A DNA stretch of 64,000 nt. Source: a virus. Shown here piece after piece: positions 8,727-55,939 of the stretch. Location: IMG/VR virus record IMGVR_UViG_3300044213_000170, positions 1 to 64,000 of that record. One strand, given 5' to 3'. The position numbers were made by a program, and so were the translations under genes. The notes beneath the pieces were generated by a model. That model was not told the origin of the DNA. It saw only the letters and a program-made list of their open reading frames with translations, and searched no databases. Positions within the stretch are counted from its first letter, which is position 1; each line of letters starts with the position of its first letter.

Positions 8727-10799
8727 TTATTTAGATTGTGCTCTGAAAACACCATCCCAATTGTCAGGCAAGCCGGCTTGACGCATTTCCTCTATACGTT
8801 CTAACCATAGACTATAATAGTTGTCCAATTGCCCATCAAACTCCCCGATTAAATCGTTAACTTGCTGCACTGCAAGGTCCCAATCTTGTCTTCGGTAGGA
8901 TGCTAACATTTCTTCATGGCCCTCTCGTGCCAATAACCATTCAGTTACTGAATTCCCCGAAGATGGCATATTTAGAACAGTATATATAGTTACCCCTTCT
9001 GTTTTTCCTTTTACTGCAATACAATCTAATTCAATGGTAAAAAATTCATCGCCGACTCGTTCTGCGGTAACTGGACCTAATACTATAAGAACTCCGTAAT
9101 TTTTACTTTGCCCTTCGAGCCTACTAGCCAAGTTAACAGCATCTCCAAGGCAGGTATAATCAAACCTCTGCTCACTACCCATGTTGCCAACCACGACAAC
9201 GCCAGTATTAATACCAATGCCCATCCCGAAAGGCGGAGTGCCTTCAGCGGAAATTTCTTTATTAAATTCATCCAAGCTCCCTATCATTTCTAATGCCGAT
9301 TTTACTGCCTCTTTGCAATGTACAGTATTATCCAATGGACTATTCCAGAATGCCATTTGAGCATCCCCGATATACTTATCTAACGTACCATTATTTTCTA
9401 ATATCTTTTTGGTCATTGCTGTCATATAGCGGTTCATAATCTTTGTCAGCCCTTGCACATCTTTCCCGTAGTGTTCACTGATACCGGTGAATCCTCGAAC
9501 ATCACTAAAGAGTATTGTCAATTCTTTTTCCTCGCCACCTAACCTTAATAGACTGGGATCCTTGACTAACTTAGCTACCAAGTCAGGACTTAAGTATGTG
9601 GAAAATTGCTTTCTGATCTGTTGTTTTTGTAAAAATTCCGACACAAATTTTACTATATAGGCGTGCAATGCTACTAATAGTAATCCTACTGCAACAAATG
9701 TGCTATCTAATAATATTAGATAATGACTGTATGCATATATGCTGCCGATTATTACACCCGATATGATAATCAATGATGCAAATATTCCTACATATACCCA
9801 TCTCATTAAACATATTAAAACGATTCCCGCCAATGCCAAAATATAAATCTCAATTTGATCTGCATCACCAGGTCTGGAAATGGCACGACCATTTAATAGC
9901 GTGCCCAAGAGACTGGCTTGTAAATATTGCGGCCATACTTCGCCTTTGGCTGTTGCAATAGGTTGAACTAATCCTGCCGCACTGAGTCCTACTACAACAA
10001 TTTCTTTATTGAATGTTGTTGGTAAGTTCATCAACGAAAACTCTGTGGGTGTTGAACTCCAGTCTATCCAAACTCTACTTATTGGGTCTATAGGTATCTT
10101 ATTTAATTTAGGAATACGAATTGCATCGATTCCAGCGCCAGTCACTTTTACTTGAATTCGAGAATCGCCCACACCTACACGTAATGTTTCCAATGCCAAT
10201 GAAGGATGTATATTTTCCCCTGTTTGAATAATCATTGGTATGCGACGAACAACACCATCAATTTCTGGGAATGTGTTAACAATACCGACACCAGCGGCCC
10301 TGTCACTTATTTCATTAACTGATGAAATTAATCCGGGATAGTTAACTAATGATTCTTCTATACCTGTTCCGATAACTTGCACAGGACTACCTGCATCTAT
10401 ATTTTTACTTTTCATACTACCTAGCGCAGGTAACACTACTGGGTATTTTTCTAAAGTTTTTTCTAATATGCTGTCTTTGTTGAATCTATCTTTTTCCGGC
10501 ATCAATACATTGAACACTACTAAACCCGCATCTCTTTTATATAAGTCTTGTATGATCTGTGCATATATGTCTCTGGGGAACGGAAACTGACCGTACTTGT
10601 CCAATGATGCTTCATCGATATTGACTGTATTTACTGGTACTCGACTGGTGGGTTGATTGATAATTAATTGATCGAAATATCTTAATCTGACAGATTCTAT
10701 AAAACTCGGATCCCATGCTCGCATAGCTAGTAAGATAGCTAGTGTAACTAATGCACCCCAGGGGTTTAGTAATATTTTTTTAATTGAAAGTTTTTTCAT
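8727..10799 (-). CDS. CHASE2-domain class III adenylate/guanylate cyclase
   Basis: The 690-residue membrane receptor has an N-terminal membrane segment (about 15-28), a periplasmic CHASE2 sensor (about 30-310), three transmembrane helices (about 316-386) and a class III cyclase domain (about 425-610). Metal-binding Asp are present in FSDVRGFT (D433) and YIGDA (D479); LGDAVNLASR gives the base-contacting Asp, Asn and transition-state Arg; VKGK supplies the substrate Lys. It therefore looks catalytically intact and probably makes cAMP from ATP. It is last in the curli-like operon behind FecR and secreted proteins. In bacteria CHASE2 cyclases are often near FecR proteins. Confidence 0.93.
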   Translation of the reverse strand: MKKLSIKKILLNPWGALVTLAILLAMRAWDPSFIESVRLRYFDQLIINQPTSRVPVNTVNIDEASLDKYGQFPFPRDIYAQIIQDLYKRDAGLVVFNVLMPEKDRFNKDSILEKTLEKYPVVLPALGSMKSKNIDAGSPVQVIGTGIEESLVNYPGLISSVNEISDRAAGVGIVNTFPEIDGVVRRIPMIIQTGENIHPSLALETLRVGVGDSRIQVKVTGAGIDAIRIPKLNKIPIDPISRVWIDWSSTPTEFSLMNLPTTFNKEIVVVGLSAAGLVQPIATAKGEVWPQYLQASLLGTLLNGRAISRPGDADQIEIYILALAGIVLICLMRWVYVGIFASLIIISGVIIGSIYAYSHYLILLDSTFVAVGLLLVALHAYIVKFVSEFLQKQQIRKQFSTYLSPDLVAKLVKDPSLLRLGGEEKELTILFSDVRGFTGISEHYGKDVQGLTKIMNRYMTAMTKKILENNGTLDKYIGDAQMAFWNSPLDNTVHCKEAVKSALEMIGSLDEFNKEISAEGTPPFGMGIGINTGVVVVGNMGSEQRFDYTCLGDAVNLASRLEGQSKNYGVLIVLGPVTAERVGDEFFTIELDCIAVKGKTEGVTIYTVLNMPSSGNSVTEWLLAREGHEEMLASYRRQDWDLAVQQVNDLIGEFDGQLDNYYSLWLERIEEMRQAGLPDNWDGVFRAQSK

Positions 10800-10817: not shown

Positions 10818-11144
10818 TCAGAAAGAAGAAACCTTCTTTCCTAAATTAAATCTAGTAGAGTCACTACCCGACCCAATTAAACAAGCGACTTCGTCGTTCA
10901 TTTGAATAATAGTCCAGGTTTTAGTTTTACTATTGACCATGAGCACGAAGCTGCTGTTGGTCTCAGCATCTTTACCGCCCCACGCAGGGACTTCTTCATA
11001 ATCCTCGCCTAATAAGAATTCTACAATGACCGATGTTTCGCCACAATAAATCTTCTTAGTAGCGGCAAATATTTCTGCTGCACTTGCTGTACTGTAAATC
11101 GCCAAAAGTAATGCTAATCCGCTTAATAATTTTGAAAACTTCAT
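10818..11144 (-). CDS. Small secreted protein of the curli/cyclase operon
   Basis: The 108-residue protein has a clear Sec signal peptide (FSKLLSGLALLLAIYSTASA) and a short mature domain with two Cys (KIYCGET and EVACLIG) that could form a disulfide, plus a WTIIQ strand. The ATG at 11144 is preferred over 11150 because AAGGA lies about nine bases upstream. It lies between the PA14-curlin gene and the cyclase and may be a periplasmic ligand or accessory for either. No function is known to me. Confidence 0.7.
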   Translation of the reverse strand: MKFSKLLSGLALLLAIYSTASAAEIFAATKKIYCGETSVIVEFLLGEDYEEVPAWGGKDAETNSSFVLMVNSKTKTWTIIQMNDEVACLIGSGSDSTRFNLGKKVSSF

Positions 11145-11172
11145 GATCATCGATCCTTAAAATAGTATTTAC

Positions 11173-12582
11173 TCATTTATTTCTAATGATAGATAATCCA
11201 CACCCTGCAGGATTTGTACAGGTCTGTGACAAACTATATGAATCTCCGATACCCGTCTGTACAAGATTGACAGAATTTGTTCCACCGGCATTGACTAAAT
11301 TTAATACTGCACTATGGCTATTACCAGTTTGACTTATACTGGCATTATTGCTGTCACCATATAAATTAATAGATGCTAAATTGGAATTCCCATTTTGGAT
11401 TATAGTAGAAGTATTATTATTCCCGTTAATTAATCCGTAAGACTGATTATTATTTCCGGTTTGATTTACCGTTGATGTATTTGTATTTCCCGAGATATTA
11501 ATAATCGAACTATTAGATAAGCCTATTTGTGTGTTTGTGATGTTGTTATAATTTCCAGTTACGGTAGCACCTAGAATATTGAAATTACTGGGCGTCAATG
11601 ACTCTGCCGGAATACCAATGGTGTTGTAAGTATATCCTTGCCCACTATTTAATTTATTAGATGATCCATTTAATGTAATGTCTTGATAATTGCCATGGCC
11701 GCTTTGATCCAAAGTAAGATTATTTTCACTGCTCGCTGTTACTTGTTTAATATATACGCCATTATAATTATTTCCTGTATAAGGACTAACAGGTATAGTG
11801 TTGGGACCATTAACTGCATAAGACCATGTGGTAGTGCTAGCAGTAGTACTGGGGCCCGTTGTATTAGTAGTTGTATTATCGCTATATGTTGTGGTCGTTA
11901 TTTGTGTCGTTGTGGTCGTGGTTGTTATGGGAGTTGCAGTCCCCACTACCGTATATGTGGTGTTATTCCAACCAGAATTGTTAGTAGTTGTTATAGTCGA
12001 CCCCACTTGTGAATCGGTAGTGGTTGTATTATATGTAGATGTTCCTGTTACCGTTGGCGCCCAATAATCTGCAGAAGTGGCCAACATACTGCTAGGTATA
12101 ATTTCCCAATTATTGGTAGACGGATTAAACCAATATAACATGGCCACGGCCTCGCCGCCGTTTTCATAATACCAAAAATCCACCGGCACAACTTGGCCGC
12201 TGGTTAATGGAGTAGTTCCTGACCAAAATGTTGGGGCCTGCTCTCGCCAAGCATTTACAACTATAGAATTATTAATTTTTAATATAGAACCATCATCGGT
12301 TGATGTTCCGAAATAATATGTACCGGCCGACGCAGCTTTGAAGTATCCCGTAAAGTGAACAATTACTTGATCCACTCTTCCGCTATCCATAACCACTCCC
12401 GATCCCCAATTAAAATTCACAGTAGATACAATACCAGTAGTTAACGGAGTAGGATATGTTAAGGGATTGATACTAGGTGTTGCACCGGTCCCTATATATG
12501 TGGTATAATTTAATCCGGCGGATCCTGACGCCCAGCTGGCACTTGTTATAGAAAACAACAAAAATAGTAAAAATTTTTTCAT
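11173..12582 (-). CDS. Secreted PA14-domain protein with C-terminal curlin-type repeats
   Basis: The 469-residue protein has a signal peptide ending ASWASG. A PA14/GLEYA-like domain follows (about 20-165: TGYFKAASAGTYYFGTSTDDGSILKINN, then WYYENGGEAVAMLYW in strand order). A very Thr-rich linker (about 175-260) leads to Asn/Gln/Gly-rich repeats such as NTSTVNQTGNNNQ and NNASISQTGNSHS. These match the CsgA/curlin pattern in which Gln and Asn stack in a beta-solenoid amyloid. The stop is preceded by a Cys pair. It overlaps FecR by ATGA. It is probably a fibre-tip adhesin or minor subunit exported through CsgG. Confidence 0.85.
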   Translation of the reverse strand: MKKFLLFLLFSITSASWASGSAGLNYTTYIGTGATPSINPLTYPTPLTTGIVSTVNFNWGSGVVMDSGRVDQVIVHFTGYFKAASAGTYYFGTSTDDGSILKINNSIVVNAWREQAPTFWSGTTPLTSGQVVPVDFWYYENGGEAVAMLYWFNPSTNNWEIIPSSMLATSADYWAPTVTGTSTYNTTTTDSQVGSTITTTNNSGWNNTTYTVVGTATPITTTTTTTQITTTTYSDNTTTNTTGPSTTASTTTWSYAVNGPNTIPVSPYTGNNYNGVYIKQVTASSENNLTLDQSGHGNYQDITLNGSSNKLNSGQGYTYNTIGIPAESLTPSNFNILGATVTGNYNNITNTQIGLSNSSIINISGNTNTSTVNQTGNNNQSYGLINGNNNTSTIIQNGNSNLASINLYGDSNNASISQTGNSHSAVLNLVNAGGTNSVNLVQTGIGDSYSLSQTCTNPAGCGLSIIRNK

Positions 12583-13697
12583 TTATAACTTTGACTGATT
12601 ATTATAGAACCTTGCGGTTTTCCATAAACCCCACTAAAATTCATAGCATCGGTGATTCTGTCCTGAGTTACTACAACTAATACCTTCGTATCATTTGCCA
12701 AGGAAACGGCAGCAAAATTATTGCCGTTAGGACTTAGTCCCATCCACGCCCACCCAAGTTGATTTAAATTCGGGTTATCATTTTTATAGATGCGTACTAT
12801 GTGTTCGTCTACATTAACGCTGGATTTAACTGCTACTCCAGTATCTGTTAATTTTGTCAGTAGTGCCAATGCCGAGCTTTGATCTTCTTGTTCTTTCGCT
12901 GCTTGCTTTTGATTTGCTTGTTGTTGATCTTGAACGGTCTGAACCTCAGCTTCAGATAGTGTATTATCTTTTTTAATGTCGCCTGTTTTTTGTGCAGCAG
13001 ATTTAGCGGCCTGTGTAATTAACACCCCGGTGATTGTATTGGGCGGAGTAATTAACAAATTATTGCCTATCGGTGTGTTACTTAGATTTACTATAACCGG
13101 AGGCAATGGCGGAGTGGCTGCTGTTTCAACTATAGTTGCCTGATAAGGTTTATCTAATCTTATGTTCGTTGATCCGCTATTAACATCTATTTTACCACTG
13201 CCGCAACTAGTACCTTTTAAGTTTACTGTTTGTGGTAATTCGCAAGCAGGCATTAAAAGTACCATACTTTTACCAGTTTCGTCTACTGCCATAACAAAAT
13301 CAGTACCACGGACAGTGATTGTGGCAGTCGGTGTGTTAATTTTTACACTATTGGGATTATTATGTGCAATATTACCGGACACATATCGTACTGTACCGCT
13401 AGCGGCTTTAAGACTAAGTTTACCGCCTTGAGAATTTTTTGGATCGTAAACAAAATCATCAATGACGAGACTGGAATTTTCCGTTACCTTAACGGTAGTA
13501 TTATCTTTAAACCTAATATTTACTATACCGTTTTTAGTTTCGACTTTATCGTCGGTCTCTATTAGAGAGCCTTGAGTCACTATAATAGTTTGTTTCCCGC
13601 GTTTAATTACTGCACTACCCGAGAGTTCGACTACCGAACCTATGTCGGCATAAGCTACAGTGGCCAATAGCCAAAGCAACAAGAGCCAGTTTTTCAC
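12579..13697 (-). CDS. Secreted FecR-domain protein
   Basis: The 372-residue protein starts at a GTG (13697) with Shine-Dalgarno AAGGAG and has a signal peptide (LLLLWLLATVAYA). A FecR domain follows: VVELSGSAVIKRG, LIETDDKVETKNG, VNIRFKDNTTVKVTENS and TPTATITVRGTDF. The C-terminal half is a Gln/Lys/Ala-rich helical stretch (about 230-285) and a small beta domain. FecR domains are periplasmic sensors or scaffolds. No sigma factor is nearby, but a CHASE2 cyclase is, a pairing also seen in bacteria. It likely links fibre secretion to the cyclase. Confidence 0.88.
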   Translation of the reverse strand: MKNWLLLLWLLATVAYADIGSVVELSGSAVIKRGKQTIIVTQGSLIETDDKVETKNGIVNIRFKDNTTVKVTENSSLVIDDFVYDPKNSQGGKLSLKAASGTVRYVSGNIAHNNPNSVKINTPTATITVRGTDFVMAVDETGKSMVLLMPACELPQTVNLKGTSCGSGKIDVNSGSTNIRLDKPYQATIVETAATPPLPPVIVNLSNTPIGNNLLITPPNTITGVLITQAAKSAAQKTGDIKKDNTLSEAEVQTVQDQQQANQKQAAKEQEDQSSALALLTKLTDTGVAVKSSVNVDEHIVRIYKNDNPNLNQLGWAWMGLSPNGNNFAAVSLANDTKVLVVVTQDRITDAMNFSGVYGKPQGSIIISQSYK

Positions 13698-13706
13698 AAG
13701 AACTCC

Positions 13707-14510
13707 TTAGTGACTCTTCTGAATAATATTAAAGCTACCACCCGCAGCAACTGCCTGCACATTAGCGACATTACTGTATGTACCTGTTTGACTAACATTA
13801 AACGTAGTACTACCTGCGCCGGTTTGCGATAACACCAAACTGCTCAAACTTGCACTAGTTTGTGTCAAGTTAATAGTATTGTTATCGCTACTAGTCAAAT
13901 TAATCAATGCTTGTTGACCAGCAGTACTATTTTGTTGGATAGTAACAGTGTTACCACTACCTGTGGTATAAACAGCGGCTTGCAATGCAGGACCATTACC
14001 TGTATAGTTTAATCCGTTATTATTTCCAGTAAATCTAGCATCTAATGCCGCATTATTCGTATACGTAGAAGTTGCAGAACAACTAGTTGTTAATCCACAA
14101 CTTACGTTAGCAGTATTGCTATTGCCCAATTGTTGAAGATACACATTAGCTGCATTACCAGTGATCTTCATGGTATTAATGACGTTGTTATTTCCAGTTT
14201 GATCAATTGTAACAACCTGATTATTCCCATTCAGCACCATGCTGTTAATAGCGCCGCTGGAATCACTTCCTGCTCGGTTACTATTACCATCTTGATTGAT
14301 ACTTATAGTAGGTGAATTACCTGTTTGTTGCAAATAGATAATATTGGTTGTGCTAGCATTTAAACTGGCAGTTACACCGGCTGCAAAACGAGTTGTTGAC
14401 TCGGTTGTAATGGCAGGTGCGGATGCTTGAGTAGGTGCGGTAGGTGCTGTCTGTGCAAACACCGCGCCAAATATTGTACTAACCGCTAACGATAATAATT
14501 TTTTTATCAT
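13707..14510 (-). CDS. Curlin-repeat (CsgA/CsgB-like) secreted protein
   Basis: The 267-residue protein has a signal peptide ending VFAQ and a Thr/Ala/Pro-rich N-terminal segment. At least six imperfect curlin repeats follow in the pattern x-I/V-x-Q-x-G-x-x-N (for example TISINQDGNSNRA, VVTIDQTGNNNVI, NVYLQQLGNSNTA, FNVSQTGTYSN). This is the amyloid-forming beta-solenoid pattern of E. coli CsgA and CsgB. A Cys pair (CGLTTSC) interrupts the repeats. It has a good ribosome-binding site and sits directly after CsgG, as expected for the export substrate. It is longer than CsgA (about 150 residues). Confidence 0.87.
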   Translation of the reverse strand: MIKKLLSLAVSTIFGAVFAQTAPTAPTQASAPAITTESTTRFAAGVTASLNASTTNIIYLQQTGNSPTISINQDGNSNRAGSDSSGAINSMVLNGNNQVVTIDQTGNNNVINTMKITGNAANVYLQQLGNSNTANVSCGLTTSCSATSTYTNNAALDARFTGNNNGLNYTGNGPALQAAVYTTGSGNTVTIQQNSTAGQQALINLTSSDNNTINLTQTSASLSSLVLSQTGAGSTTFNVSQTGTYSNVANVQAVAAGGSFNIIQKSH

Positions 14511-14529: not shown

Positions 14530-15342
14530 TTACTCCCTCTCTTTTTCTTCCTTGAATTTCCATAGGCCTATGCTTTCGCCCTTCTTGATAAGCTCGACAA
14601 TTCCCTGTTCGATTGCTGATCGTAAAGCATAGTTTCCTGGTTCATTGAAAGTTTGACTGATGTCAAATTCGAATGTTTTGGTATTTTGATTATAAAATTT
14701 TAATCCGGTCATACCGTCCTGGGTACTTAACAAATTTTTCTCAATTGTGATACTTGTTAATACTTCTCCAGTCTGAACACTAACTAACCGTAAACTGATT
14801 ACCACTTGATCCTGCGTATACTGAGTGTAAGGGCCGATTCCCAATGTAGCGAATCCTGATCCCCCAGTCAGTACATTAGTATTGTAATCAATGATGCCGC
14901 CTTCTAAAATAACGCCTGCTAGTGTTAATGGCGGTAACATTTTGGCTTTTTCACCTTCATAGATTTCACGTGTTTGTTTAATCATTTGACGTTCTTTTAA
15001 CAAATTCTCTAAATTCACACGTTCTACTACCGTGAACCATTGACGATTTCCGGCTTCTTGAAGGCTTCTGATTAGGTAACTTTCGGCACCTTGAGTGACT
15101 GCGGTGCTGAATAAACTTAATGTTTGACTATTTTTGCGTTGGCCGGTCAAATCTTTAAATCCGTATACTGCTATGGCAATTTTAGGACCATCTGGTGCAG
15201 GCAAAGAATCGATTTCTTTTATAATTGTAACTGATTCTTTAGGCTGATCTTTGATGCTTAATTCGGTGAATGGTCGAATAGTGCTACAACCAATTATGGA
15301 ATTTAGTATTAGAGATGGTATAATTACTTTGATTAAGTTCAT
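14530..15342 (-). CDS. csgG: CsgG-like outer-membrane curli secretion lipoprotein
   Basis: The 270-residue protein has a lipoprotein signal with lipobox IIGC (Cys19). CsgG landmarks follow in order: LPAPDGPKIAIAVYGFKDLTGQ, FSTAVTQGAESYLI, WFTVVERVNLENLLKERQ, GVILEGGIIDYNTN, GFATLGIGPYTQY, ISLRLVSVQTGEVL and a C-terminal GLWKFK helix. CsgG forms a nine-fold outer-membrane channel exporting curlin subunits. Of the E. coli constriction residues, Phe56 (before STAV) is kept, whereas the Asn55 and Tyr51 positions appear to be Leu and Gln. It lies 10 bp from csgF, with the substrate gene next. Confidence 0.95.
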   Translation of the reverse strand: MNLIKVIIPSLILNSIIGCSTIRPFTELSIKDQPKESVTIIKEIDSLPAPDGPKIAIAVYGFKDLTGQRKNSQTLSLFSTAVTQGAESYLIRSLQEAGNRQWFTVVERVNLENLLKERQMIKQTREIYEGEKAKMLPPLTLAGVILEGGIIDYNTNVLTGGSGFATLGIGPYTQYTQDQVVISLRLVSVQTGEVLTSITIEKNLLSTQDGMTGLKFYNQNTKTFEFDISQTFNEPGNYALRSAIEQGIVELIKKGESIGLWKFKEEKERE

Positions 15343-15352
15343 TTATATCTCC

Positions 15353-15841
15353 TCAAAAACTAAAACTCGATATTGGTACAGTAATGGTCTGTGTTGGGCT
15401 AGCGTTTGGAATAAATGTTCCAGCAGAATTCTTTGTGCCATCGTATACAGTTAATGTAACAGACCCGTTGGACTTAACCCATTGTATTTGTTGGGCATCG
15501 CTGACCATAAAATTACCGCTAGTACAACTTGCGCCACCGCTGGATACACAGTCTTTAAATAAATTGTTTGTTAGTTGTGTGGCCAGCTGACTGTATACTT
15601 GACCTGTAAACAGGGCCATAAATTTAGCCAGCGGAGTATTTGCTGCTGCAGACTGGGCTGCAGCAGCATCTGCTGCGGCTTTTGAGTCAACCTGAGCCTT
15701 GGCTGTTTGACGCATTTGCTCCAAAGTCAACACTTGACTAGACCAACCGTTGCCGCTGAACGTTGGATCTTTAAACTGTTGTACTAAATCGGCATTTGAT
15801 ATTATTGGTGCAAATAATAACCCCACCAAGATCTTTCTCAT
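15353..15841 (-). CDS. csgF: CsgF-like curli assembly factor
   Basis: The protein has 162 residues from the ATG at 15841, which has GGAG six bases upstream and gives a proper signal peptide (MRKILVGLLFAPIISNA); in-frame starts upstream are unlikely. The mature N-terminus LVQQFKDPTFSGNGW matches the CsgF pattern F-[RK]-[ND]-P-x-F-x-G that inserts into the CsgG channel, and the end TITVPISSFSF matches the CsgF C-terminus. An Ala-rich helix and a Cys pair lie between. CsgF caps CsgG and couples secretion to nucleation. It is the first gene of the operon; a weak late-promoter-like CTAAATATT lies just upstream. Confidence 0.85.
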   Translation of the reverse strand: MRKILVGLLFAPIISNADLVQQFKDPTFSGNGWSSQVLTLEQMRQTAKAQVDSKAAADAAAAQSAAANTPLAKFMALFTGQVYSQLATQLTNNLFKDCVSSGGASCTSGNFMVSDAQQIQWVKSNGSVTLTVYDGTKNSAGTFIPNASPTQTITVPISSFSF

Positions 15842-15889
15842 ACTAAACTCCATAGTCACTTAAATATTTAGTGAAACTGTGATTTTTTA

Positions 15890-16271: not shown

Positions 16272-16308
16272 TCGCCTAATTTAATTGGAATTTTTAATAA
16301 ATACCATT

Positions 16309-16584
16309 ATGGACTTTTTTAAATTAGTAGCAGAATTAGGATTTCCGATAGCAGCCGCGTTAGGCGCCGGATATTTTGTATTTTTGACCTTAAAATTTAT
16401 TCTTGCTGGTGTTACATCTAGTGTAAACAGTATGGGCGGAATTATTAAAGGTTTAGATGCACGTGTAGACACCATGACCAATCAACTGCAACGAATTGAT
16501 GTAAAAGTTAGCCATGGGTTGGGGTTACAGCCAGATTACGATAGAATAGCAAGAGCCAAACAATCGGATCAGCGTAAGGATTAA
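16309..16584 (+). CDS. Holin-like small membrane protein 1
   Basis: The protein has 91 residues from the ATG at 16309; a TTG at 16285 is also in frame. One long N-terminal membrane helix (GFPIAAALGAGYFVFLTLKFIL) is followed by an amphipathic helix with heptad-like spacing (LDARVDTMTNQLQRIDVKV). It is closely related in layout to the next gene, two bases downstream. The topology resembles BhlA/UviB-type phage holins, but that is only an analogy. Confidence 0.6.
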   Translation: MDFFKLVAELGFPIAAALGAGYFVFLTLKFILAGVTSSVNSMGGIIKGLDARVDTMTNQLQRIDVKVSHGLGLQPDYDRIARAKQSDQRKD

Positions 16585-16586
16585 AA

Positions 16587-16946
16587 ATGAGTAATGATCT
16601 AGTAGAAATAGTCAATAAGTATGGATTTCCGGTCATTGCCGCCGGCGGGTTAGGTTATTTTGTCTACTATATTTGGAAATGGGTAACCACAGAAATCAAA
16701 CCAGTAATAGGACAAGCCAATGGAACTCTCATCGCTCTTATTGACCGAATTCGTATGCTCGATAATGATCTTATACGTCTTAACCAAAAAGTAGAAACCG
16801 TAATGGAACTACGCGGTAAGAGTATTGAATTTGAACGTATTAAAGCTGAACAAGAAATTAACAAAGCTGCCGCGGCGGAACAACAAATCGGCAGACATAG
16901 AAAAGCTACTAAAGCCGAAATTCGAAGTTCAGCAGGCGACGATTAA
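16587..16946 (+). CDS. Holin-like small membrane protein 2
   Basis: The 119-residue protein has an N-terminal segment NKYGFPVIAAGGLGYFVYYIWKWV forming one membrane helix. A coiled-coil helix (LIDRIRMLDNDLIRLNQKVETV) and a charged Lys/Glu-rich tail follow. It is paralogous in layout to the preceding gene and its N-terminus recurs in the 30-residue ORF at 24718-24810. The topology fits a BhlA-like holin or phage membrane scaffold. It ends convergently, overlapping the next minus-strand gene by four bases. Confidence 0.6.
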   Translation: MSNDLVEIVNKYGFPVIAAGGLGYFVYYIWKWVTTEIKPVIGQANGTLIALIDRIRMLDNDLIRLNQKVETVMELRGKSIEFERIKAEQEINKAAAAEQQIGRHRKATKAEIRSSAGDD

Positions 16947-17245
16947 TTATTAATTCTTGCTAAAATTTCGTCGTAAAAGGTGTCCATTTCGCCACCGAAT
17001 TTTCCTTTTAATTCTTCACCTAAGAATTTGCAAAGAGTAGTATTATTTCCGGTATACGCTGCAATAAACGCCTTATGTAGATCTTTAAGGCGATCTAAAT
17101 CATTGAGATCAACCAATGGTGTATTTTCTAAGACACAATATGCAGTGATCGTTTTATCATCACCCACACTAAAAGTTTCTAGTTCAAGTACTATGTAATT
17201 TTCTTGAATTTGTTTTAAATTTTCATCACCCAATATGATATTCAT
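16943..17245 (-). CDS. Unknown 100-residue phage protein
   Basis: This small acidic soluble protein (LELETFSVGDDKTITAYCVLENTPL, then helices ending FYDEILARINN) overlaps the start region of the gamma-glutamylcyclotransferase-like gene by 20 bp and so is probably co-translated with it. I do not recognise a family. Confidence 0.6.
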   Translation of the reverse strand: MNIILGDENLKQIQENYIVLELETFSVGDDKTITAYCVLENTPLVDLNDLDRLKDLHKAFIAAYTGNNTTLCKFLGEELKGKFGGEMDTFYDEILARINN

Positions 17246-18205: not shown

Positions 18206-18520
18206 TTAATTACTCGGTTCTAATTTTACTATTAACGGAAACCCATTACTTCTTGCTAGCAATGAGACTTCTACTCCTTTTTGCTCAGCAAGTTCATACG
18301 GCATTGTGGCGACAATGGCACTACCATCAGTATGGATTTTCATGGTCATTTCGTCCGCCGATTCTCTTGCGTAGTCAAAGAAAATAATTAATGTTTCAAC
18401 AACAAACTCCTGAGTAGTTACTTCGTCGTTGATATAGATGATATTGTATTCCGGAGGAGGTTTGATGTCCTCTCGGGGTTTAATTTTATGTACAATGGTT
18501 GGGTCTGCTTGTTCTGACAT
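18206..18520 (-). CDS. clpS: ClpS adaptor of the ClpAP protease
   Basis: The 104-residue protein has the complete ClpS core: PPPEYNIIYINDEVTTQEFV, FFDYARESADEMTMKIHTDG and ATMPYELAEQKGVEV. The N-degron pocket residues Asn-Asp (IND) and His (KIHTDG) are conserved, so it should bind N-end-rule substrates and deliver them to host ClpA. The flexible N-terminal tail needed for delivery is present. A phage copy could redirect host proteolysis. The gene lies directly downstream of the hsp20 terminator. Confidence 0.92.
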   Translation of the reverse strand: MSEQADPTIVHKIKPREDIKPPPEYNIIYINDEVTTQEFVVETLIIFFDYARESADEMTMKIHTDGSAIVATMPYELAEQKGVEVSLLARSNGFPLIVKLEPSN

Positions 18521-18535
18521 ATGATTTATAAATTA

Positions 18536-18561
18536 AAAAGGAAGCTGTTACGCTTCCTTTT
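18536..18561 (-). terminator. Rho-independent terminator after hsp20
   Basis: A perfect 10-bp inverted repeat (AAAAGGAAGC ... GCTTCCTTTT, 6-base loop) lies between hsp20 and clpS. Both strands have an oligo-T side, so it can act bidirectionally; on the minus strand it ends the hsp20 transcript. Confidence 0.85.
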
Positions 18562-18602
18562 ATTTTAACATAGAGACTAATTATTGTCAACTATATTATG
18601 GA

Positions 18603-19046
18603 TTACTTTTGAAAAGTAATTTGGATTTTTTTAGGTTTTTGTGCCTCGGGAATCACTTGTTCCAACGTAACGGTTAAAATACCATTTTGTACAGTAGCAT
18701 TACGAACTTCTACATTGTCGGCCAATGTAAAGGTGCGGTCGAAACTGCGATTACTGATACCTTTGTAAATATAGTCGGTTTCCTGATCTTTCTTGGGTTG
18801 GTTACCCTTGATAGTTAGACTATTTTCTTTAAGTTCGATATCAATTTCTTCTTCCGAAAATCCCGCAACAGCTAACTCGATAACATAGTGTGTTTCGTCA
18901 AGTTTAGCAATATTATATGGGGGATATTTGTCGTCGCTGCGACTGTTGGCGAATGATCGATTCATTTCGTCGAATAAACGATTGAAACCAATTGCATGAC
19001 GAGCAAAGCTCGGAAGATCGATGGTACGAATGTCATAGTTTGTCAT
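18603..19046 (-). CDS. hsp20: Small heat-shock protein Hsp20 (IbpA-like)
   Basis: The 147-residue protein has an N-terminal FDEMNRSF segment and an alpha-crystallin domain (about 40-130: YNIAKLDETHYVIELAVAGFSEEEI, then LTIKGN, NRSFDRTFTL, NGILTVTLEQ). The tail ends with PKKIQITF. It should hold unfolding proteins in a refoldable state and may protect virion assembly. It has its own sigma70 promoter, a late-type element, a structured leader, a strong ribosome-binding site (AAGGAG) and its own terminator, so it is an independently controlled and probably highly expressed unit. Confidence 0.95.
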   Translation of the reverse strand: MTNYDIRTIDLPSFARHAIGFNRLFDEMNRSFANSRSDDKYPPYNIAKLDETHYVIELAVAGFSEEEIDIELKENSLTIKGNQPKKDQETDYIYKGISNRSFDRTFTLADNVEVRNATVQNGILTVTLEQVIPEAQKPKKIQITFQK

Positions 19047-33254: not shown

Positions 33255-33944
33255 TTATTGATGTTTATGGAATCTAGATAATCCCATATTATTAGTTTCT
33301 TTTTGACACACTACGCAAGATACTCTGGTTCGGGCAGGATTATTATTTATAAAGTAACATTCGCCATTTTCAATCTGTTCTTTCATCCATTCTGAGTGCT
33401 TAATACCATGTTGCTTCTTCCACTCAGGATCAATGAAATGATGCGTACCTGCCTTAACTCTATCAGATGCCACACTGGTGCCGTCAGGGCGTTTTAGTAA
33501 ATTATGTTTTCCCTCCGCAACTAACCTTTTAGTTACCTTACCACCTAAGTTTGCTTTTGGAGGATCATTGACAAAATTGTGCGTCCCATTATCTATTCTT
33601 TTCTGTGCATTTTCTTTTCCAGCATCTCTCAGTTTTTCAATGGCAGATTCAGTGTGTTTATATCCAGAATTATTGCCTCTACCACCATTGGTAGAATTTC
33701 TCAGTATCCCCGTACCCAAATCTTTTCGTCCATATTGTTCAATTAGTTCCGATTCATAATCGTATGCTTCTTCTTCATACAAACAATCTCTTAGAATGAC
33801 TATTTTACTTTTATCTTTCGGCAAAAGATTAGTTCCATTCGTTCCCGTATGTGATTTCCATGCTCTATCGTTACTGCCCTTACCAATGTAATAAGGTGTT
33901 AGGTCTTCTCGTAGATATGCGTAAACATAAAATATATTTTCCAT
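33255..33944 (-). CDS. GIY-YIG homing endonuclease
   Basis: The 229-residue protein opens with YVYAYLREDLTPYYIGKGSNDRAW (GIY-YIG with catalytic Tyr and Arg) and has a Glu-bearing YESELIEQYG. It ends with NUMOD-like repeated helix modules and a Cys pair (CVVCQKE) suggesting a zinc finger. It sits between nrdA-C and nrdB, a classical homing site in T4 phages. A strong ribosome-binding site (AGGAG) and its own late-like promoter are present. Confidence 0.9.
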   Translation of the reverse strand: MENIFYVYAYLREDLTPYYIGKGSNDRAWKSHTGTNGTNLLPKDKSKIVILRDCLYEEEAYDYESELIEQYGRKDLGTGILRNSTNGGRGNNSGYKHTESAIEKLRDAGKENAQKRIDNGTHNFVNDPPKANLGGKVTKRLVAEGKHNLLKRPDGTSVASDRVKAGTHHFIDPEWKKQHGIKHSEWMKEQIENGECYFINNNPARTRVSCVVCQKETNNMGLSRFHKHQ

Positions 33945-33966
33945 TATTTCTCCTAATGCATAATAC

Positions 33967-33974
33967 TATTTATC
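33967..33974 (-). promoter_or_regulatory. Late-type promoter GATAAATA before the GIY-YIG gene
   Basis: GATAAATA on the minus strand lies about 22 bases before the endonuclease start. Homing endonuclease genes in T4 relatives are often under late promoters. Confidence 0.5.
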
Positions 33975-34003
33975 ATTTACGCTTCATATCGTTGAATAGT
34001 TAC

Positions 34004-35017
34004 TCAAAGTTTGCATGCCTCACAATCTTCCATGTCGTCAAAATCAATGACTTCTGGTGGTGCTTCAATATCATCTTGTACTTTGGCTCCCTGCTTATTA
34101 ATAAGTGAGTAATAAAAAGTTTTGGTTCCGTAATAATGTGCCATCATCAAGTTTTTAGCAACCAATGTCGTTGGAACTTTTCTGTCAGGAAAATGTGCCG
34201 GATTGTAGAAAGTATTTACAGATATTGCCTGATCAACATATGCTTGTAATACAGCCGATGTTTTTAGATACCCGACACAATCTGTTTGATCCCACATCAA
34301 TTGATATTTGTTTTTCAATTTGTGATATTCTGGAACAACTTGTGTAAATGATCCTGCTTTGCTTTCTTTAACTGTAATTAAACTCATTGGCATTTCTATG
34401 CCGTTAGTGCTATTAATAACGACACTACTAGATTCTACAGGAGCAATCGCCATTTGTGTAGCATTACGGACACCATATTCTTTCATCTGAATTCTCAGTG
34501 ATTCCCAATCCAATTCCGGTGCAAAGTTTGCTAGTTCATTTACACCTGCGGCACGTACTTCCCACGGGAATGTACCTTGTCCATATCTAGTTTTGTCACT
34601 GTCTAAACATTTACCACGCTCTTTTGCTAACTCAACCGATGCCTCTGTTAAATAGTAGGCTTGATGTTCCATCCAAGTTTTTACATCTTGCAACGCATCT
34701 TTATCACCATACTTATAATCTCGCTTGGCGTGCCAATACGCTAAGTTAGTGACACCAATACCTAGCGGACGGATTTCGTCATTGCTTAATTTACTTTGGA
34801 TACTTAGAAAATCTTGATAGTCCAAAATATTATTGAGACTGCGGTGAAGAATACGACAGGCACGACGCATATCTTCCGGGTTACGGAAGGCACCCCAATT
34901 GATAGAGCCGAGTGTGCAAAGAGCCACTCTGCCCTCCGCTTCATCAATCTCAAAATATTCGTATTCATCATCTAACTCTTCGGGTAGATATTCTATTTCT
35001 TCATATAGTTCGTTCAT
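34004..35017 (-). CDS. nrdA-C: Ribonucleotide reductase NrdA, C-terminal piece
   Basis: The 337-residue protein corresponds to the C-terminal 45 percent of class Ia NrdA. It contains VALCTLGSINWGAF (second active-site Cys, E. coli C462), GIGVTNLAYW, PVESSSVVINSTNGIEMP, ISVNTFYNP and the tail CEACKL that takes electrons from glutaredoxin. It begins with an added or extended acidic segment rich in Glu, Asp and Tyr. It must pair with the N-terminal piece at 35025-36494 to be active. Confidence 0.93.
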   Translation of the reverse strand: MNELYEEIEYLPEELDDEYEYFEIDEAEGRVALCTLGSINWGAFRNPEDMRRACRILHRSLNNILDYQDFLSIQSKLSNDEIRPLGIGVTNLAYWHAKRDYKYGDKDALQDVKTWMEHQAYYLTEASVELAKERGKCLDSDKTRYGQGTFPWEVRAAGVNELANFAPELDWESLRIQMKEYGVRNATQMAIAPVESSSVVINSTNGIEMPMSLITVKESKAGSFTQVVPEYHKLKNKYQLMWDQTDCVGYLKTSAVLQAYVDQAISVNTFYNPAHFPDRKVPTTLVAKNLMMAHYYGTKTFYYSLINKQGAKVQDDIEAPPEVIDFDDMEDCEACKL

Positions 35018-35024
35018 TATTCAT

Positions 35025-36494
35025 CTACCTTATCTTCCTGATGTTAACAATGTCATTTGATTTTGTTTTCATAAACTCGTCTACATTGGACTTTTTAACT
35101 CTAATCAACTTTCGTTCAGAATTCATTCGCTTGAAACTCTTGGTGGGCAAAAGGATTTCGCAACATAAATTCGACTGATAAATCTTATGATATTCAGGAT
35201 CAAACGGACCTTGATTCATTACATTGTCTATGAACACAAGATAGATACGTCCGGTGTCTGTACGTTCTTTTAAAATGCCGCCTTTGAATACTTCTTCTGC
35301 TGACATAACTTTTTTACGCAAGCCCGATTGTTTTTCATATTTTGTATATAATTGTTCAAACAACTGAGTATCTCTGTAAAATGCTTCGTACAAGTCAGGT
35401 ACTTCGTTGGGATCAAAGAAAGTAATATTTTCTTTATTTTTAAAGCGGCGCCAAAAGAAGGCACTTAATACAACGCCATAGTCCATATGACGTACACGTG
35501 TTTCTTCCGTACCTTGATTATTCTTTAGAACGATAAGATCATCAAATTGATGATGCCAAATTGGATAAAATACTGTGGCGCTGGCATTACGTATACCACC
35601 CTGACTACAACTTCGTAGATCGCCGAACCATTTCTTTAAGAATGGTATCATACCTGTATGCATAATTTCCCCGCCACGAATAGGACTACCAAGCGGACGT
35701 AAGCGACCAATCTCTAATCCTATGCCAGCACGTTTGCTGGCATACTTGGCCATCATTTCGCCCGAAGCAAAGATACTATCAAGATCGTCGTCACTGCGAA
35801 TGAGAACACAACTGCTAAACTGTTTAGTTGGAGTTCCAAGGCCAGCAAGCACAGGAGTAGCGAGAGTGAAAAGACCATCGGACGCCGCATGGTAATACTC
35901 TTTAATGTATCGCATCCTTGCTGTGTTAGGTTCTTCTTTGTGAAATACTGTTGCAGCCGCGACCATATATCTAATTTGGGGAGTTTCATATGTTTCCTTA
36001 GTAGCACGATTTCTAACTAGATATTTTTCAATTAACTGTTCAATCGCAGCATAGCTATATTGTTCGTCCTTCTCATGGTCCAACATGGCGTTCATTTTAT
36101 CCCAGTCTTCTTTTGTATACCACTCAAGAAGTTCAGGAGTATATAATCCTACGCTTACATTTTTTTTAACAATCTCATATATGTGTGGTACTTCGTAGTC
36201 GCCGTAGACATCTTTGCGTAACATACTAAGACGTTGTTTACCGGCCACATATTGATAATTTGTATGTCCTACTTCGGGGTTATTTTCTACGTCGATTAAA
36301 TCGACTATAGCTCGCAGTGTTATTTCATCTATTTCTCGTGTAGTGATATTATCATAAAATTGAGGATGACTTTTAATTTCGATCATACTCTGACTTACAT
36401 CTGCTACACCTCTACAAACTTTTTGAACTTGTGCTTGCCACTTTTCAACCGACAATGGTTCTTTATTGCCTGAACGTTTTACTACTTGAATCAT
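35025..36494 (-). CDS. nrdA-N: Ribonucleotide reductase NrdA, N-terminal piece
   Basis: The 489-residue protein begins with an ATP-cone (VVKRSGNKEPLSVEKWQAQV) and holds SSCVLIRSDDDLDSI (E. coli C225), GIGLEIGRLR and QSNLCCEILLPTK (thiyl-radical Cys C439 and Glu). It then ends with a non-homologous basic tail rich in Lys and Arg and stops with TAG, seven bases before the C-terminal piece. All N-side catalytic residues are present. Confidence 0.93.
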   Translation of the reverse strand: MIQVVKRSGNKEPLSVEKWQAQVQKVCRGVADVSQSMIEIKSHPQFYDNITTREIDEITLRAIVDLIDVENNPEVGHTNYQYVAGKQRLSMLRKDVYGDYEVPHIYEIVKKNVSVGLYTPELLEWYTKEDWDKMNAMLDHEKDEQYSYAAIEQLIEKYLVRNRATKETYETPQIRYMVAAATVFHKEEPNTARMRYIKEYYHAASDGLFTLATPVLAGLGTPTKQFSSCVLIRSDDDLDSIFASGEMMAKYASKRAGIGLEIGRLRPLGSPIRGGEIMHTGMIPFLKKWFGDLRSCSQGGIRNASATVFYPIWHHQFDDLIVLKNNQGTEETRVRHMDYGVVLSAFFWRRFKNKENITFFDPNEVPDLYEAFYRDTQLFEQLYTKYEKQSGLRKKVMSAEEVFKGGILKERTDTGRIYLVFIDNVMNQGPFDPEYHKIYQSNLCCEILLPTKSFKRMNSERKLIRVKKSNVDEFMKTKSNDIVNIRKIR

Positions 36495-54173: not shown

Positions 54174-55016
54174 TCAAGATTGCCAGTCTATTTTTTCCAG
54201 ACTGAATGGGTAGTTGGCTTCTTTGTAGAATGATTTTCGTTTAGTAAGATGTCGTTTGGCAAATTTACAGGTGCTTGTGATGTCCCAAATTTCAACGTGG
54301 TCCTTGTCTTGAGCTTTCCTAATACCTCGGCCAATAGATTGTATAACCCTAACAAAGCTCTTTCCGGGTTCCACAAGAACCAAATTAAAGATCCGAGGAA
54401 TATTAATCCCCACAGCGGCCACACCATAAGTCGCCACAATAACTTTCCCATCTGCGGTAGCCACCTCATCATATTCTTCCTTTCGATCCTTGGCCTTTGT
54501 TGCGCCACTAACAAATACAGCATCTTTGATTCTGCTGGTCAATTCCTTGCCCGGGCCCACTCTATCTACTAGAACTAATGTGTTACCTGACTCCGCTATC
54601 TTACTGATCATATTGCTCATATAATCAATTCGTTCTTGTGTTTCTAACAAATATCGTAGCTCTTGCTGATAGTCTTTGTATTCTACATAGTCTACCATCT
54701 GTACTATATTTACATGACAATTACTCAAGTGGCCTGCTTCTTGAAGTTCGTTGGCGCTGAGTTTTCCTACCACTGGCCCGATGCAACAAAATAATGCTTG
54801 AGCTGCATATTCTTCTTTTGGTATGGTCCCCGTTAGCCCCCAACGGATCGGTGTATTGGCAAATACGCTGGTTAACAAAGTTTTTAATGCATCTGCTTTA
54901 GCACTATGGCAATTAGATACAACTGCGCCATTAACAATATAGTTGTGATCATTTTGAATATGTAGGTTATACACCAATTCAGGTTTTGTGATTTCTGTTT
55001 TCTTTATTAATTTCAT
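54174..55016 (-). CDS. uvsW-C: Split intein C-fragment fused to C-terminal half of UvsW helicase
   Basis: Residues 1-35 are an intein C-domain (KKTEITKPELVYNLHIQNDHNYIVNGAVVSN) with block F His and terminal Asn. The +1 residue is Cys of CHSAKAD, which completes the DECH box of a superfamily-2 helicase. The 245-residue extein continues with WGLTGTIPKE (motif III), TLVLVDRVGPG (IV), VATYGVAAVGINIP (V) and VIQSIGRGIRK (VI). Trans-splicing with the product of 55940-56956 would give a 486-residue UvsW (T4 UvsW about 503). Confidence 0.93.
   Translation of the reverse strand: MKLIKKTEITKPELVYNLHIQNDHNYIVNGAVVSNCHSAKADALKTLLTSVFANTPIRWGLTGTIPKEEYAAQALFCCIGPVVGKLSANELQEAGHLSNCHVNIVQMVDYVEYKDYQQELRYLLETQERIDYMSNMISKIAESGNTLVLVDRVGPGKELTSRIKDAVFVSGATKAKDRKEEYDEVATADGKVIVATYGVAAVGINIPRIFNLVLVEPGKSFVRVIQSIGRGIRKAQDKDHVEIWDITSTCKFAKRHLTKRKSFYKEANYPFSLEKIDWQS
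54884..54902. repeat. 19-bp extein repeat, copy in the C-extein
   Basis: TTAATGCATCTGCTTTAGC encodes, on the minus strand, the first residues (SAKADAL) of the UvsW C-extein. The same 19 bases recur at 55912-55930. Confidence 0.85.
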
Positions 55017-55912
55017 AATGTTATTAATTTCTTAATTTTTTCCTGTGTGTTAACATCAAACACAGTATAATCAATATTGCCAATTTTCTTAGCAGTTAAA
55101 CAAATCCATTCTTTGTTTACTAGGATTACATTATAACAGCTATTTTCGGCCCATTGCAACAATGCAGTATATTTTGCCATAAATTTTTGTTCGGAACATA
55201 ATTCTATCGGTTTTACTTCGATGCAAGTTTTGGTTATGTGATTTACAAAATCAACTATATAAACACGTTCTTTACTGTTATACTGATATGGTATTCTCAG
55301 AGTTTCATATAATGCATCTTTATCAAAATACTGATACAATGCCTCCCAGCTTGATCGGTAACGCTTACCATTATACTGTGCATCCCAATGAGTATTTCTA
55401 TTATTAGAGTTCGGAGTAAACTTACCTGATAAAATTAGTGATTTCATTAATTTAGAATGTGCCTCTTTTTGATCAGCTGACATTCGTTTGCCGTACATAC
55501 CGTTGTTTTTACCTTTGTTCTTTTCACTAATTTTTAATTTAGATTCTTCTGTATGCGGTGTACCCAGAAATCCTGTTTTCCCTTTGTTCCAAGGAATACC
55601 TGTATTTAAATTGTTTATTATTTTATTTTTATGAATATGCCAACAAGAATTACCACCCAATTTGGCTAATTCTGTCTTGATTTCTTTTTCTGTTTGTGCA
55701 CCGTCAAGTAAGTTATCAACGTTTTTAACCCATATATCCGTTTTTTTGTTTAGCAGGCGCCTTTTAAACTTCTGCAAATCTTTACCACTTATTAATATAC
55801 CGTTTGATAACTCAACTGTTTTATTTTTATAATCCACAATTCTGGTAATTTGACCATAATGTGTTAACAAGTTATTAATATCTACAATCCAACTATTATT
55901 TGTTTTTTTCAT
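55013..55912 (-). CDS. Free-standing homing endonuclease inside the split intein
   Basis: The 299-residue protein has an N-terminal WIVDINNLL/VKNVDNLLDG repeat and NUMOD3-like DNA-binding motifs (GFLGTPHTEESKLKISEKNKGKNNGMYG). A nuclease domain follows with RSSWEALYQYFD, YIVDFVNHITKTCIEVKP (Asp...Glu-x-Lys) resembling the EDxHD/PD-(D/E)XK-type endonucleases of fractured split-intein genes. It overlaps the downstream uvsW-C start by four bases. It should spread the intein by cutting intact uvsW. Confidence 0.85.
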   Translation of the reverse strand: MKKTNNSWIVDINNLLTHYGQITRIVDYKNKTVELSNGILISGKDLQKFKRRLLNKKTDIWVKNVDNLLDGAQTEKEIKTELAKLGGNSCWHIHKNKIINNLNTGIPWNKGKTGFLGTPHTEESKLKISEKNKGKNNGMYGKRMSADQKEAHSKLMKSLILSGKFTPNSNNRNTHWDAQYNGKRYRSSWEALYQYFDKDALYETLRIPYQYNSKERVYIVDFVNHITKTCIEVKPIELCSEQKFMAKYTALLQWAENSCYNVILVNKEWICLTAKKIGNIDYTVFDVNTQEKIKKLITL

Positions 55913-55930
55913 TAATGCATCTGCTTTAGC
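55912..55930. repeat. 19-bp extein repeat, footprint copy upstream of the endonuclease
   Basis: Exact copy of 54884-54902, lying between the intein N-fragment stop and the endonuclease start. On the minus strand it still spells HSAKADAL before the ATG, a remnant of the uninterrupted UvsW target. Adjacent Ser codons differ (TCA here, AGT in the extein), so it is not a recent copy. Confidence 0.85.
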
Positions 55931-55939
55931 TGAATGTAC

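What the first reader, a model, noticed from the sequence alone, without database searches (positions are those of the whole stretch)
8727..10799. Catalytically complete class III cyclase of CHASE2 type in a phage
Metal Asp residues (D433, D479), substrate Lys, base-contact Asp, Asn and transition-state Arg are all readable. A receptor cyclase with a periplasmic sensor would let the phage alter host cAMP in response to envelope conditions. I know of no described phage example.
Basis: partly seen in the sequence, partly recalled or inferred. Interest (0 to 1): 0.78.

Follow-up and report, generated by a model that had tools for sequence, protein, structure and literature searches.

The report
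Phage curli operon with membrane cyclase
A large bacterial virus carries an apparently intact membrane receptor that should make cyclic AMP, as the last gene of an operon for amyloid (curli) surface fibres; such virus-borne sets have been described before, but this one sits in a giant-phage lineage where I found no earlier report, and related viruses have repeatedly swapped the receptor's enzyme half.

Summary
The ORF is real but lies on the MINUS strand (8727-10799, 690 aa): CHASE2 (E 6e-33) plus class III cyclase (E 7e-20). Five of the six named residues hold: D433, D479, K475, N556, R560. The base-contact residue is Thr549, not Asp. The claim of no described phage example is wrong: HTVC008M and Melnitz carry it, and a 2022 paper describes adenylate cyclase inside phage curli (T8SS) clusters. 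Of 95 distinct viral homologues with enough flank, 86 have CsgF, CsgG and FecR. The four core residues are invariant in 133 distinct proteins and dN/dS is about 0.1, so a working enzyme is very likely. What looks new: (1) the module in jumbo-type phages (PA5oct/Atu_ph07-like terminase); (2) repeated swapping of three catalytic-domain types onto the same CHASE2 sensors, breaking near residue 391; (3) a stand-alone copy of the cyclase's C-terminal subdomain in some phages. No phage record searched holds a cNMP-binding protein, so cAMP must act on host receptors. Ordinary as 'a cyclase in a phage'; moderately interesting as a modular receptor.

The parts
8727..10799 (-). CHASE2-class III (IIIb-type) adenylate cyclase receptor, 690 aa; N-terminal TM helix, periplasmic CHASE2, three TM helices, coupling helix, cyclase 423-609, C-terminal helical tail 618-675; catalytic set D433 K475 D479 T549 N556 R560
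10818..11150 (-). small secreted protein (110 aa, signal peptide by inspection), no family match
   Evidence: phmmer relatives in some loci
11173..12582 (-). secreted PA14-domain protein with C-terminal curlin repeats (second curlin-like subunit)
   Evidence: PA14 1.4e-13, Curlin_rpt 4e-8
12579..13697 (-). FecR-domain secreted protein
   Evidence: FecR 2e-11; overlaps the next gene by 4 bases
13707..14510 (-). secreted curlin-like protein (QxGN repeats seen by pattern; no Pfam match)
   Evidence: position and sequence relatives
14530..15342 (-). CsgG outer-membrane curli export pore (lipobox ..IIGC by inspection)
   Evidence: 1.8e-47
15353..15859 (-). CsgF curli accessory protein
   Evidence: 4.7e-9
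16285..16584 (+). small membrane protein with GFPI motif, recurring partner of the module
   Evidence: both small proteins present in 90 of 95 assessed viral loci
16587..16946 (+). second small membrane protein of the same family
16943..17245 (-). stand-alone copy of the cyclase C-terminal subdomain (matches residues 572-669 of the cyclase; lacks all catalytic residues)
   Evidence: (E about 1e-13 for the matched stretch)

Best explanation
The gene is the signalling end of a phage-encoded curli (type VIII secretion) operon. During infection the phage makes a CsgG/CsgF outer-membrane exporter, two curlin-like secreted proteins, a periplasmic FecR protein and a CHASE2 receptor cyclase. The CHASE2 domain sits in the periplasm and, as in the bacterial relative CyaD1, restrains a cytoplasmic homodimeric class IIIb cyclase. 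A periplasmic state reported by FecR and/or by exported or stalled curlin releases it. The resulting cAMP acts on host CRP/Clr-type receptors, since the phage encodes none that I could find, and shifts the host surface and motility programme in step with amyloid export. Shown here: domains, catalytic residues, operon order, conservation, purifying selection, FecR-CHASE2 linkage in bacteria, no phage cNMP-binding protein found. Inferred: expression as one unit, cyclase activity and ATP specificity, gating by FecR or curli state, the host target and the benefit to the phage.
For: Seven same-strand genes with gaps of at most about 20 bases. In 95 distinct viral homologues with enough flank, 86 have CsgF+CsgG+FecR. 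D433, K475, D479, R560 invariant in 133 distinct phage-type proteins; median dN/dS 0.10 overall, 0.05 in the catalytic domain, 29 independent pairs. AlphaFold model pLDDT 87 gives a class III fold (TM 0.85-0.90 to CyaB/CyaC). Bacterial CHASE2 genes have FecR within 7 kb in 23 of 40 alphaproteobacterial loci, against about 0.5 expected from 117 FecR domains in about 139 Mb. In SAR116 the order is C39 ABC exporter, cNMP-binding-HlyD fusion, CHASE2 cyclase, FecR: the cyclase pair linked to another export system with its cAMP receptor fused to the exporter. No cNMP-binding protein in 32 phage records. S. meliloti CyaD1 without CHASE2 makes cAMP constitutively, and Clr-cAMP raises succinoglycan and lowers motility genes (PMC5498481). 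FecR+CHASE2 cyclase clusters in Campylobacterota (PMC9239204); FecR+CHASE2 kinase operon controls biofilm in Burkholderia (PMC5192318).
Against: In S. meliloti the neighbouring FecR protein SMc02177 was not needed for signal perception by CyaD1/D2/K (PMC5498481), so FecR may be output rather than ligand. Five of 95 viral homologues have no curli genes within reach of the fetched DNA. The host is unknown, so presence of a CRP/Clr receptor is unknown; CRP-like and Clr-like sites are not enriched in the window. No clumping was seen with Melnitz infection (PMC9004378). No biochemical test exists.
Confidence: 0.55

Rival explanations
1. The cyclase feeds general host reprogramming (catabolite or motility control, or counteracting loss of cAMP during infection) and sits in the curli operon only because the whole bacterial FecR-CHASE2-export cluster was acquired together; it does not sense curli.
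For: FecR-CHASE2 cyclase pairs are common in bacteria without CsgG (0 of 40 loci had CsgG); five viral homologues stand without curli genes.
Against: Linkage to CsgF/CsgG/FecR kept in 86 of 95 divergent viral loci and across two terminase lineages.
Confidence: 0.25
2. The product is not (only) cAMP: the three catalytic types (T/N, D/S, S/N at positions 549/556) make different cyclic nucleotides, or differ in how hosts or rival systems sense or degrade the product, and phages swap them for that reason.
For: Repeated catalytic-domain exchange at the sensor-enzyme junction.
Against: K475 and all core residues are constant and the Lys+Thr/Asp pairs are both adenine-type by the known rule; swaps could be neutral mosaicism.
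Confidence: 0.15
3. A passenger acquired from a host and without function in infection.
For: No experimental function known.
Against: Strong purifying selection, invariant active site, hundreds of viral homologues, expression of phage curli components in metatranscriptomes (PMC9599517).
Confidence: 0.05

Closest known systems
Pelagiphage T8SS cluster with FecR and adenylate cyclase (PMC9599517; HTVC008M NC_020484, Melnitz MZ577097)
   Same: Same gene order csgF-csgG-curlin-FecR-curlin-cyclase; cyclase 37-38% identical over 88-98%
   Different: Those are pelagi/methylophages (podo- and Kyanoviridae-type); this one has a jumbo-phage-type terminase, a PA14-curlin protein and a stand-alone cyclase tail; catalytic residues are T/N here, D/S in Melnitz, S/N in HTVC008M; a search of the three curli-phage papers for 'CHASE' gave no CHASE2 domain
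Sinorhizobium meliloti CyaD1 (CHASE2 adenylate cyclase) with SMc02177 (FecR) and Clr
   Same: CHASE2 receptor cyclase beside a FecR gene; cAMP controls surface polysaccharide and motility (PMC5498481)
   Different: Bacterial; has its own receptor Clr next door, the phage has none; compared from the paper, not by alignment here
SAR116 CHASE2 cyclase-FecR next to cNMP-HlyD/C39 ABC exporter (L092, L093)
   Same: CHASE2 cyclase + FecR joined to a protein exporter; 32% identical cyclase
   Different: Type I exporter with a fused cNMP receptor instead of CsgG/CsgF; D/S catalytic type
Burkholderia BiofilmReg operon (LysM-FecR, CHASE2 histidine kinase; PMC5192318)
   Same: FecR + CHASE2 receptor pair controlling biofilm
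   Different: Histidine kinase output instead of cyclase; bacterial
Jumbo phages PA5oct, Phosso, Atu_ph07
   Same: Terminase 51-53% identical
   Different: No cyclase match in these records

Membership tests
Class III nucleotide cyclase | two metal Asps, substrate Lys, Asn and transition-state Arg in register | tested here: met
   D433, D479, K475, N556, R560
Class III nucleotide cyclase | base-contact Asp (class IIIa) or Thr (class IIIb) | tested here: met
Class III nucleotide cyclase | makes cAMP or cGMP | not testable with these tools
   needs an enzyme assay
CHASE2 receptor cyclases | CHASE2 between an N-terminal TM helix and three TM helices, then the output domain | tested here: met
   (CHASE2 6.1e-33), model helices 13-29, 313-331, 335-360, 367-399
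CHASE2 receptor cyclases | activity controlled by the periplasmic domain | not testable with these tools
   reported for CyaD1 in PMC5498481 only
Curli / type VIII secretion system | CsgG pore and CsgF | tested here: met
Curli / type VIII secretion system | secreted curlin-repeat subunits | tested here: met
   Curlin_rpt in 11173-12582; 13707-14510 by repeat pattern only
Curli / type VIII secretion system | CsgE/CsgC/CsgD as in enterobacteria | tested here: not met
   no Pfam match to these in the gene block; the phage clusters in PMC9599517 also lack them. These are not universal outside enterobacteria, so this does not exclude membership
Published phage T8SS-FecR-AC module | order csgF, csgG, curlin, FecR, curlin, cyclase | tested here: met
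Jumbo (PA5oct/Atu_ph07-like) phage | large terminase of that lineage | tested here: met
   51.7% to PA5oct group, 53.4% Phosso, 51.1% Atu_ph07
Jumbo (PA5oct/Atu_ph07-like) phage | genome over 200 kb | tested here: inconclusive
   record is 145.4 kb, probably a fragment; records with 61-72% identical terminase and the same cyclase reach 250, 328 and 343 kb

The most novel reading that the evidence does not exclude
Phages keep a CHASE2 envelope sensor and repeatedly exchange its whole enzyme half between three catalytic types at one fixed joint (near residue 391), and some also carry a free copy of the enzyme's C-terminal subdomain as a separate gene. This would be a modular, rapidly re-armed second-messenger receptor that reports curli export to the host cell.
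Probability: 0.3. Interest if true: 0.68.

Novelty: new member of a known kind. Interest (0 to 1): 0.45.

Why it matters
Phages of at least two large lineages carry an amyloid-export operon together with a receptor that should write cAMP into the host, and hold the receptor under strong selection. What CHASE2 domains sense is an open question (stated as such in PMC5192318); the tight phage package of CHASE2 cyclase, FecR and a curli exporter, with natural enzyme-half swaps that mark the signalling joint, offers a compact system to test whether CHASE2/FecR pairs monitor protein export in the periplasm.

Tried and rejected
Host CRP sites as evidence that the phage uses cAMP: not enriched; the alphaproteobacterial Clr box neither. 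A phage-encoded cAMP receptor: none in 32 records. Assignment to Kyanoviridae/pelagimyophages by analogy with Melnitz: rejected by the terminase (31-35% to that lineage, 61-72% to jumbo-type records). Bacterial close relatives from genome contigs: the first scan found none; of the six loci of the second, L089-L091 carry curli-module genes and are probably phage contigs binned into MAGs (inference). Stand-alone tail as a general T4-like phage gene: no match in 50,697 phage records and only two loci by collection scan, so it is specific to these module-bearing phages as far as seen. Convergence at positions 549/556 instead of domain exchange: rejected, since the catalytic tree was built without these two columns. 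Searching L018, L164 and eight other records for this terminase gave nothing, so the lineage of the mosaic examples is unknown.

Full report
Observation. The finding's coordinates hold a clean 690-aa ORF, but on the minus strand; the plus strand is not open. It carries CHASE2 (residues 19-326) and a class III cyclase domain (425-606) well above Pfam cut-offs. Alignment with solved cyclases and residue numbering put D433 and D479 at the metal sites, K475 at the substrate Lys, N556 and R560 at the Asn and transition-state Arg. The base-contact site, seven residues before the Asn (Thr1139 in Spirulina CyaC, from established knowledge), is Thr549. Thr is the class IIIb residue, so the active site is nevertheless complete.

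Structure. An AlphaFold model from 28 window/locus sequences has mean pLDDT 87.1: one TM helix (13-29), a periplasmic CHASE2 fold, three TM helices, a coupling helix, the cyclase fold (423-609) and a helical tail (618-675). Foldseek finds CyaB (TM-score 0.89-0.90 by target length, 36% identity), CyaC and Cya2. The listed matches are all nucleotide cyclases.

Context. The cyclase is the last of seven minus-strand genes with gaps of at most about 20 bases: CsgF 15353-15859, CsgG 14530-15342, a curlin-like protein 13707-14510, FecR 12579-13697, a PA14 protein with curlin repeats 11173-12582, a small secreted protein 10818-11150, and the cyclase. Two small membrane proteins (16285-16584 and 16587-16946, plus strand) recur with the module in 90 of 95 assessed viral loci. 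In HTVC008M and Melnitz they are encoded just upstream of csgF; those tested match no Pfam family. They occupy the place where PMC9599517 reports a histidine kinase, which deserves a second look.

What virus. The window is part of a 145.4-kb IMG/VR record. Its terminase is closest to jumbo phages PA5oct and kin (51.7%), Phosso (53.4%) and Atu_ph07 (51.1%). Among records with the same cyclase, some have a terminase 61-72% identical to it (records of 149 to 343 kb), others only 31-35% identical, among them Melnitz and HTVC008M. The module thus sits in at least two lineages of phages. I found no paper on curli carried by jumbo phages (one search returned only incidental co-mentions, judged by title and abstract); the library holds open-licence papers only.

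Literature. PMC7029224 reported csgF/csgG in pelagimyophages and proposed 'sibling capture'. PMC9004378 reported them in Melnitz and proposed a lysis role. PMC9599517 described the full cluster with FecR and adenylate cyclase in podo- and myo-pelagiphages and proposed transfer between viral families. A search of the three texts for 'CHASE' found no mention of the CHASE2 domain.

Conservation. A scan of IMG/VR found at least 598 related stretches. In 133 distinct viral-type proteins D433, K475, D479, D553 and R560 never vary; positions 549/556 are Thr/Asn (67), Asp/Ser (64) or Ser/Asn (2). Over 29 independent close pairs dN/dS has a median of 0.10, and 0.05 in the catalytic domain. Of 95 distinct loci with at least 5.5 kb upstream, 86 have CsgF, CsgG and FecR, four more have FecR, and five have none of them.

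Domain exchange. A tree of the catalytic domain without columns 549 and 556 needs 2 changes of catalytic type; a tree of the CHASE2/TM part of the same 74 proteins needs 8, and holding the Asp/Ser proteins together there is rejected (AU p = 4.6e-68). Identity profiles show the joint: L164 is mostly 60-83% identical to L019 up to about residue 300 and 36-58% from residue 391 to 630, while against Melnitz it jumps from mostly 17-53% before residue 390 to mostly 60-93% after it; L018 against L005 drops from mostly 64-96% before residue 330 to 33-56% over the catalytic domain. The break lies at about the last TM helix and the coupling helix. The trees are quick ones with some long branches, so the number of swaps is approximate, but the profiles alone show that swaps happened.

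Stand-alone tail. ORF 16943-17245 and 12 relatives in viral contigs match residues 572-669 of the cyclase. The model (pLDDT 89) has the same order of elements as that part of the cyclase, without any catalytic residue. It has no match in the cultured-phage collection. A regulator of, or decoy for, the cyclase is a guess.

Bacterial relatives and mechanism. In 40 alphaproteobacterial loci chosen by CHASE2, 23 have a FecR gene within about 7 kb (expected about 0.5 from 117 FecR domains in about 139 Mb), several have a HlyD-type exporter gene or a cNMP-binding protein, none CsgG. In SAR116 the nearest cellular cyclases are followed by FecR and preceded by a protein that fuses a cNMP-binding domain to a HlyD adaptor, next to a C39 ABC exporter. 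I read this as a CHASE2-FecR pair that can attach to export systems. Experimental support from relatives: CyaD1 lacking CHASE2 is constitutive, and Clr-cAMP raises succinoglycan and lowers motility genes in S. meliloti (PMC5498481); FecR-CHASE2 operons govern biofilm in Burkholderia (PMC5192318); Campylobacterota CHASE2 cyclases cluster with FecR (PMC9239204). Against it, SMc02177 (FecR) was not needed for signal perception. No phage record searched holds a cNMP-binding protein, so the target is most likely a host protein. CRP-like and Clr-like sites in the window are at chance level.

Verdict. An active cAMP-making receptor is very likely (about 0.9, inference from residues and selection). 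That it senses the envelope or curli-export state and steers host surface behaviour is the best explanation (about 0.55). As a find it is a new member of a published kind, with a new phage lineage, a corrected base-contact residue, and domain exchange as the more novel element.

Noticed in passing
L018, L025, L161, L164, L165, L167 versus relatives: Mosaic cyclases: CHASE2 half from one group, catalytic half from another, joint near residue 391.
   Followed up: yes
window 16943-17245 (-) and L013, L014, L016, L020-L022, L028-L030, L036, L037, L074, L095: Free-standing gene homologous to the C-terminal subdomain of the cyclase, mostly beside the curli genes.
   Followed up: partly
window 16285-16584 and 16587-16946 (+): Two related small membrane proteins with a GFPI motif accompany nearly every viral curli module; they may be what was called 'histidine kinase' in PMC9599517.
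   Followed up: partly
L092:1388-8977: SAR116 operon with a cNMP-binding domain fused to a HlyD adaptor, a C39 ABC exporter, CHASE2 cyclase and FecR: export apparently under direct cAMP control.
   Followed up: partly
L008, L009, L012, L059, L080: Viral homologues of the cyclase with no CsgF/CsgG/FecR found in the fetched flank.
   Followed up: no
window 54174-56956 (-): UvsW-type helicase broken in two by what looks like a split intein (N half ends with ..ECFSGDSL.. onwards, C half begins ..YIVNGAVVSNC) with a NUMOD3 endonuclease-like gene between.
   Followed up: partly
window 33255-36494 (-): Ribonucleotide reductase large subunit in two ORFs, with a GIY-YIG-like endonuclease ORF (33255-33944, by eye; no Pfam match) next door; possible intron or fractured gene.
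   Followed up: no
G001 positions 216075-218752: Terminase large subunit of a 250-kb related record is split into two pieces about 1.1 kb apart.
   Followed up: no
window 18206-19046 (-): Phage-encoded ClpS adaptor and HSP20 chaperone side by side.
   Followed up: no
L084:330-3305 (-): Three membrane desaturase-like proteins in the same record, judged by eye from His-box motifs.
   Followed up: no
L089, L090, L091: Contigs filed under Rhodobacteraceae and Pirellulales MAGs carry phage curli-module genes and are probably phage contamination.
   Followed up: no
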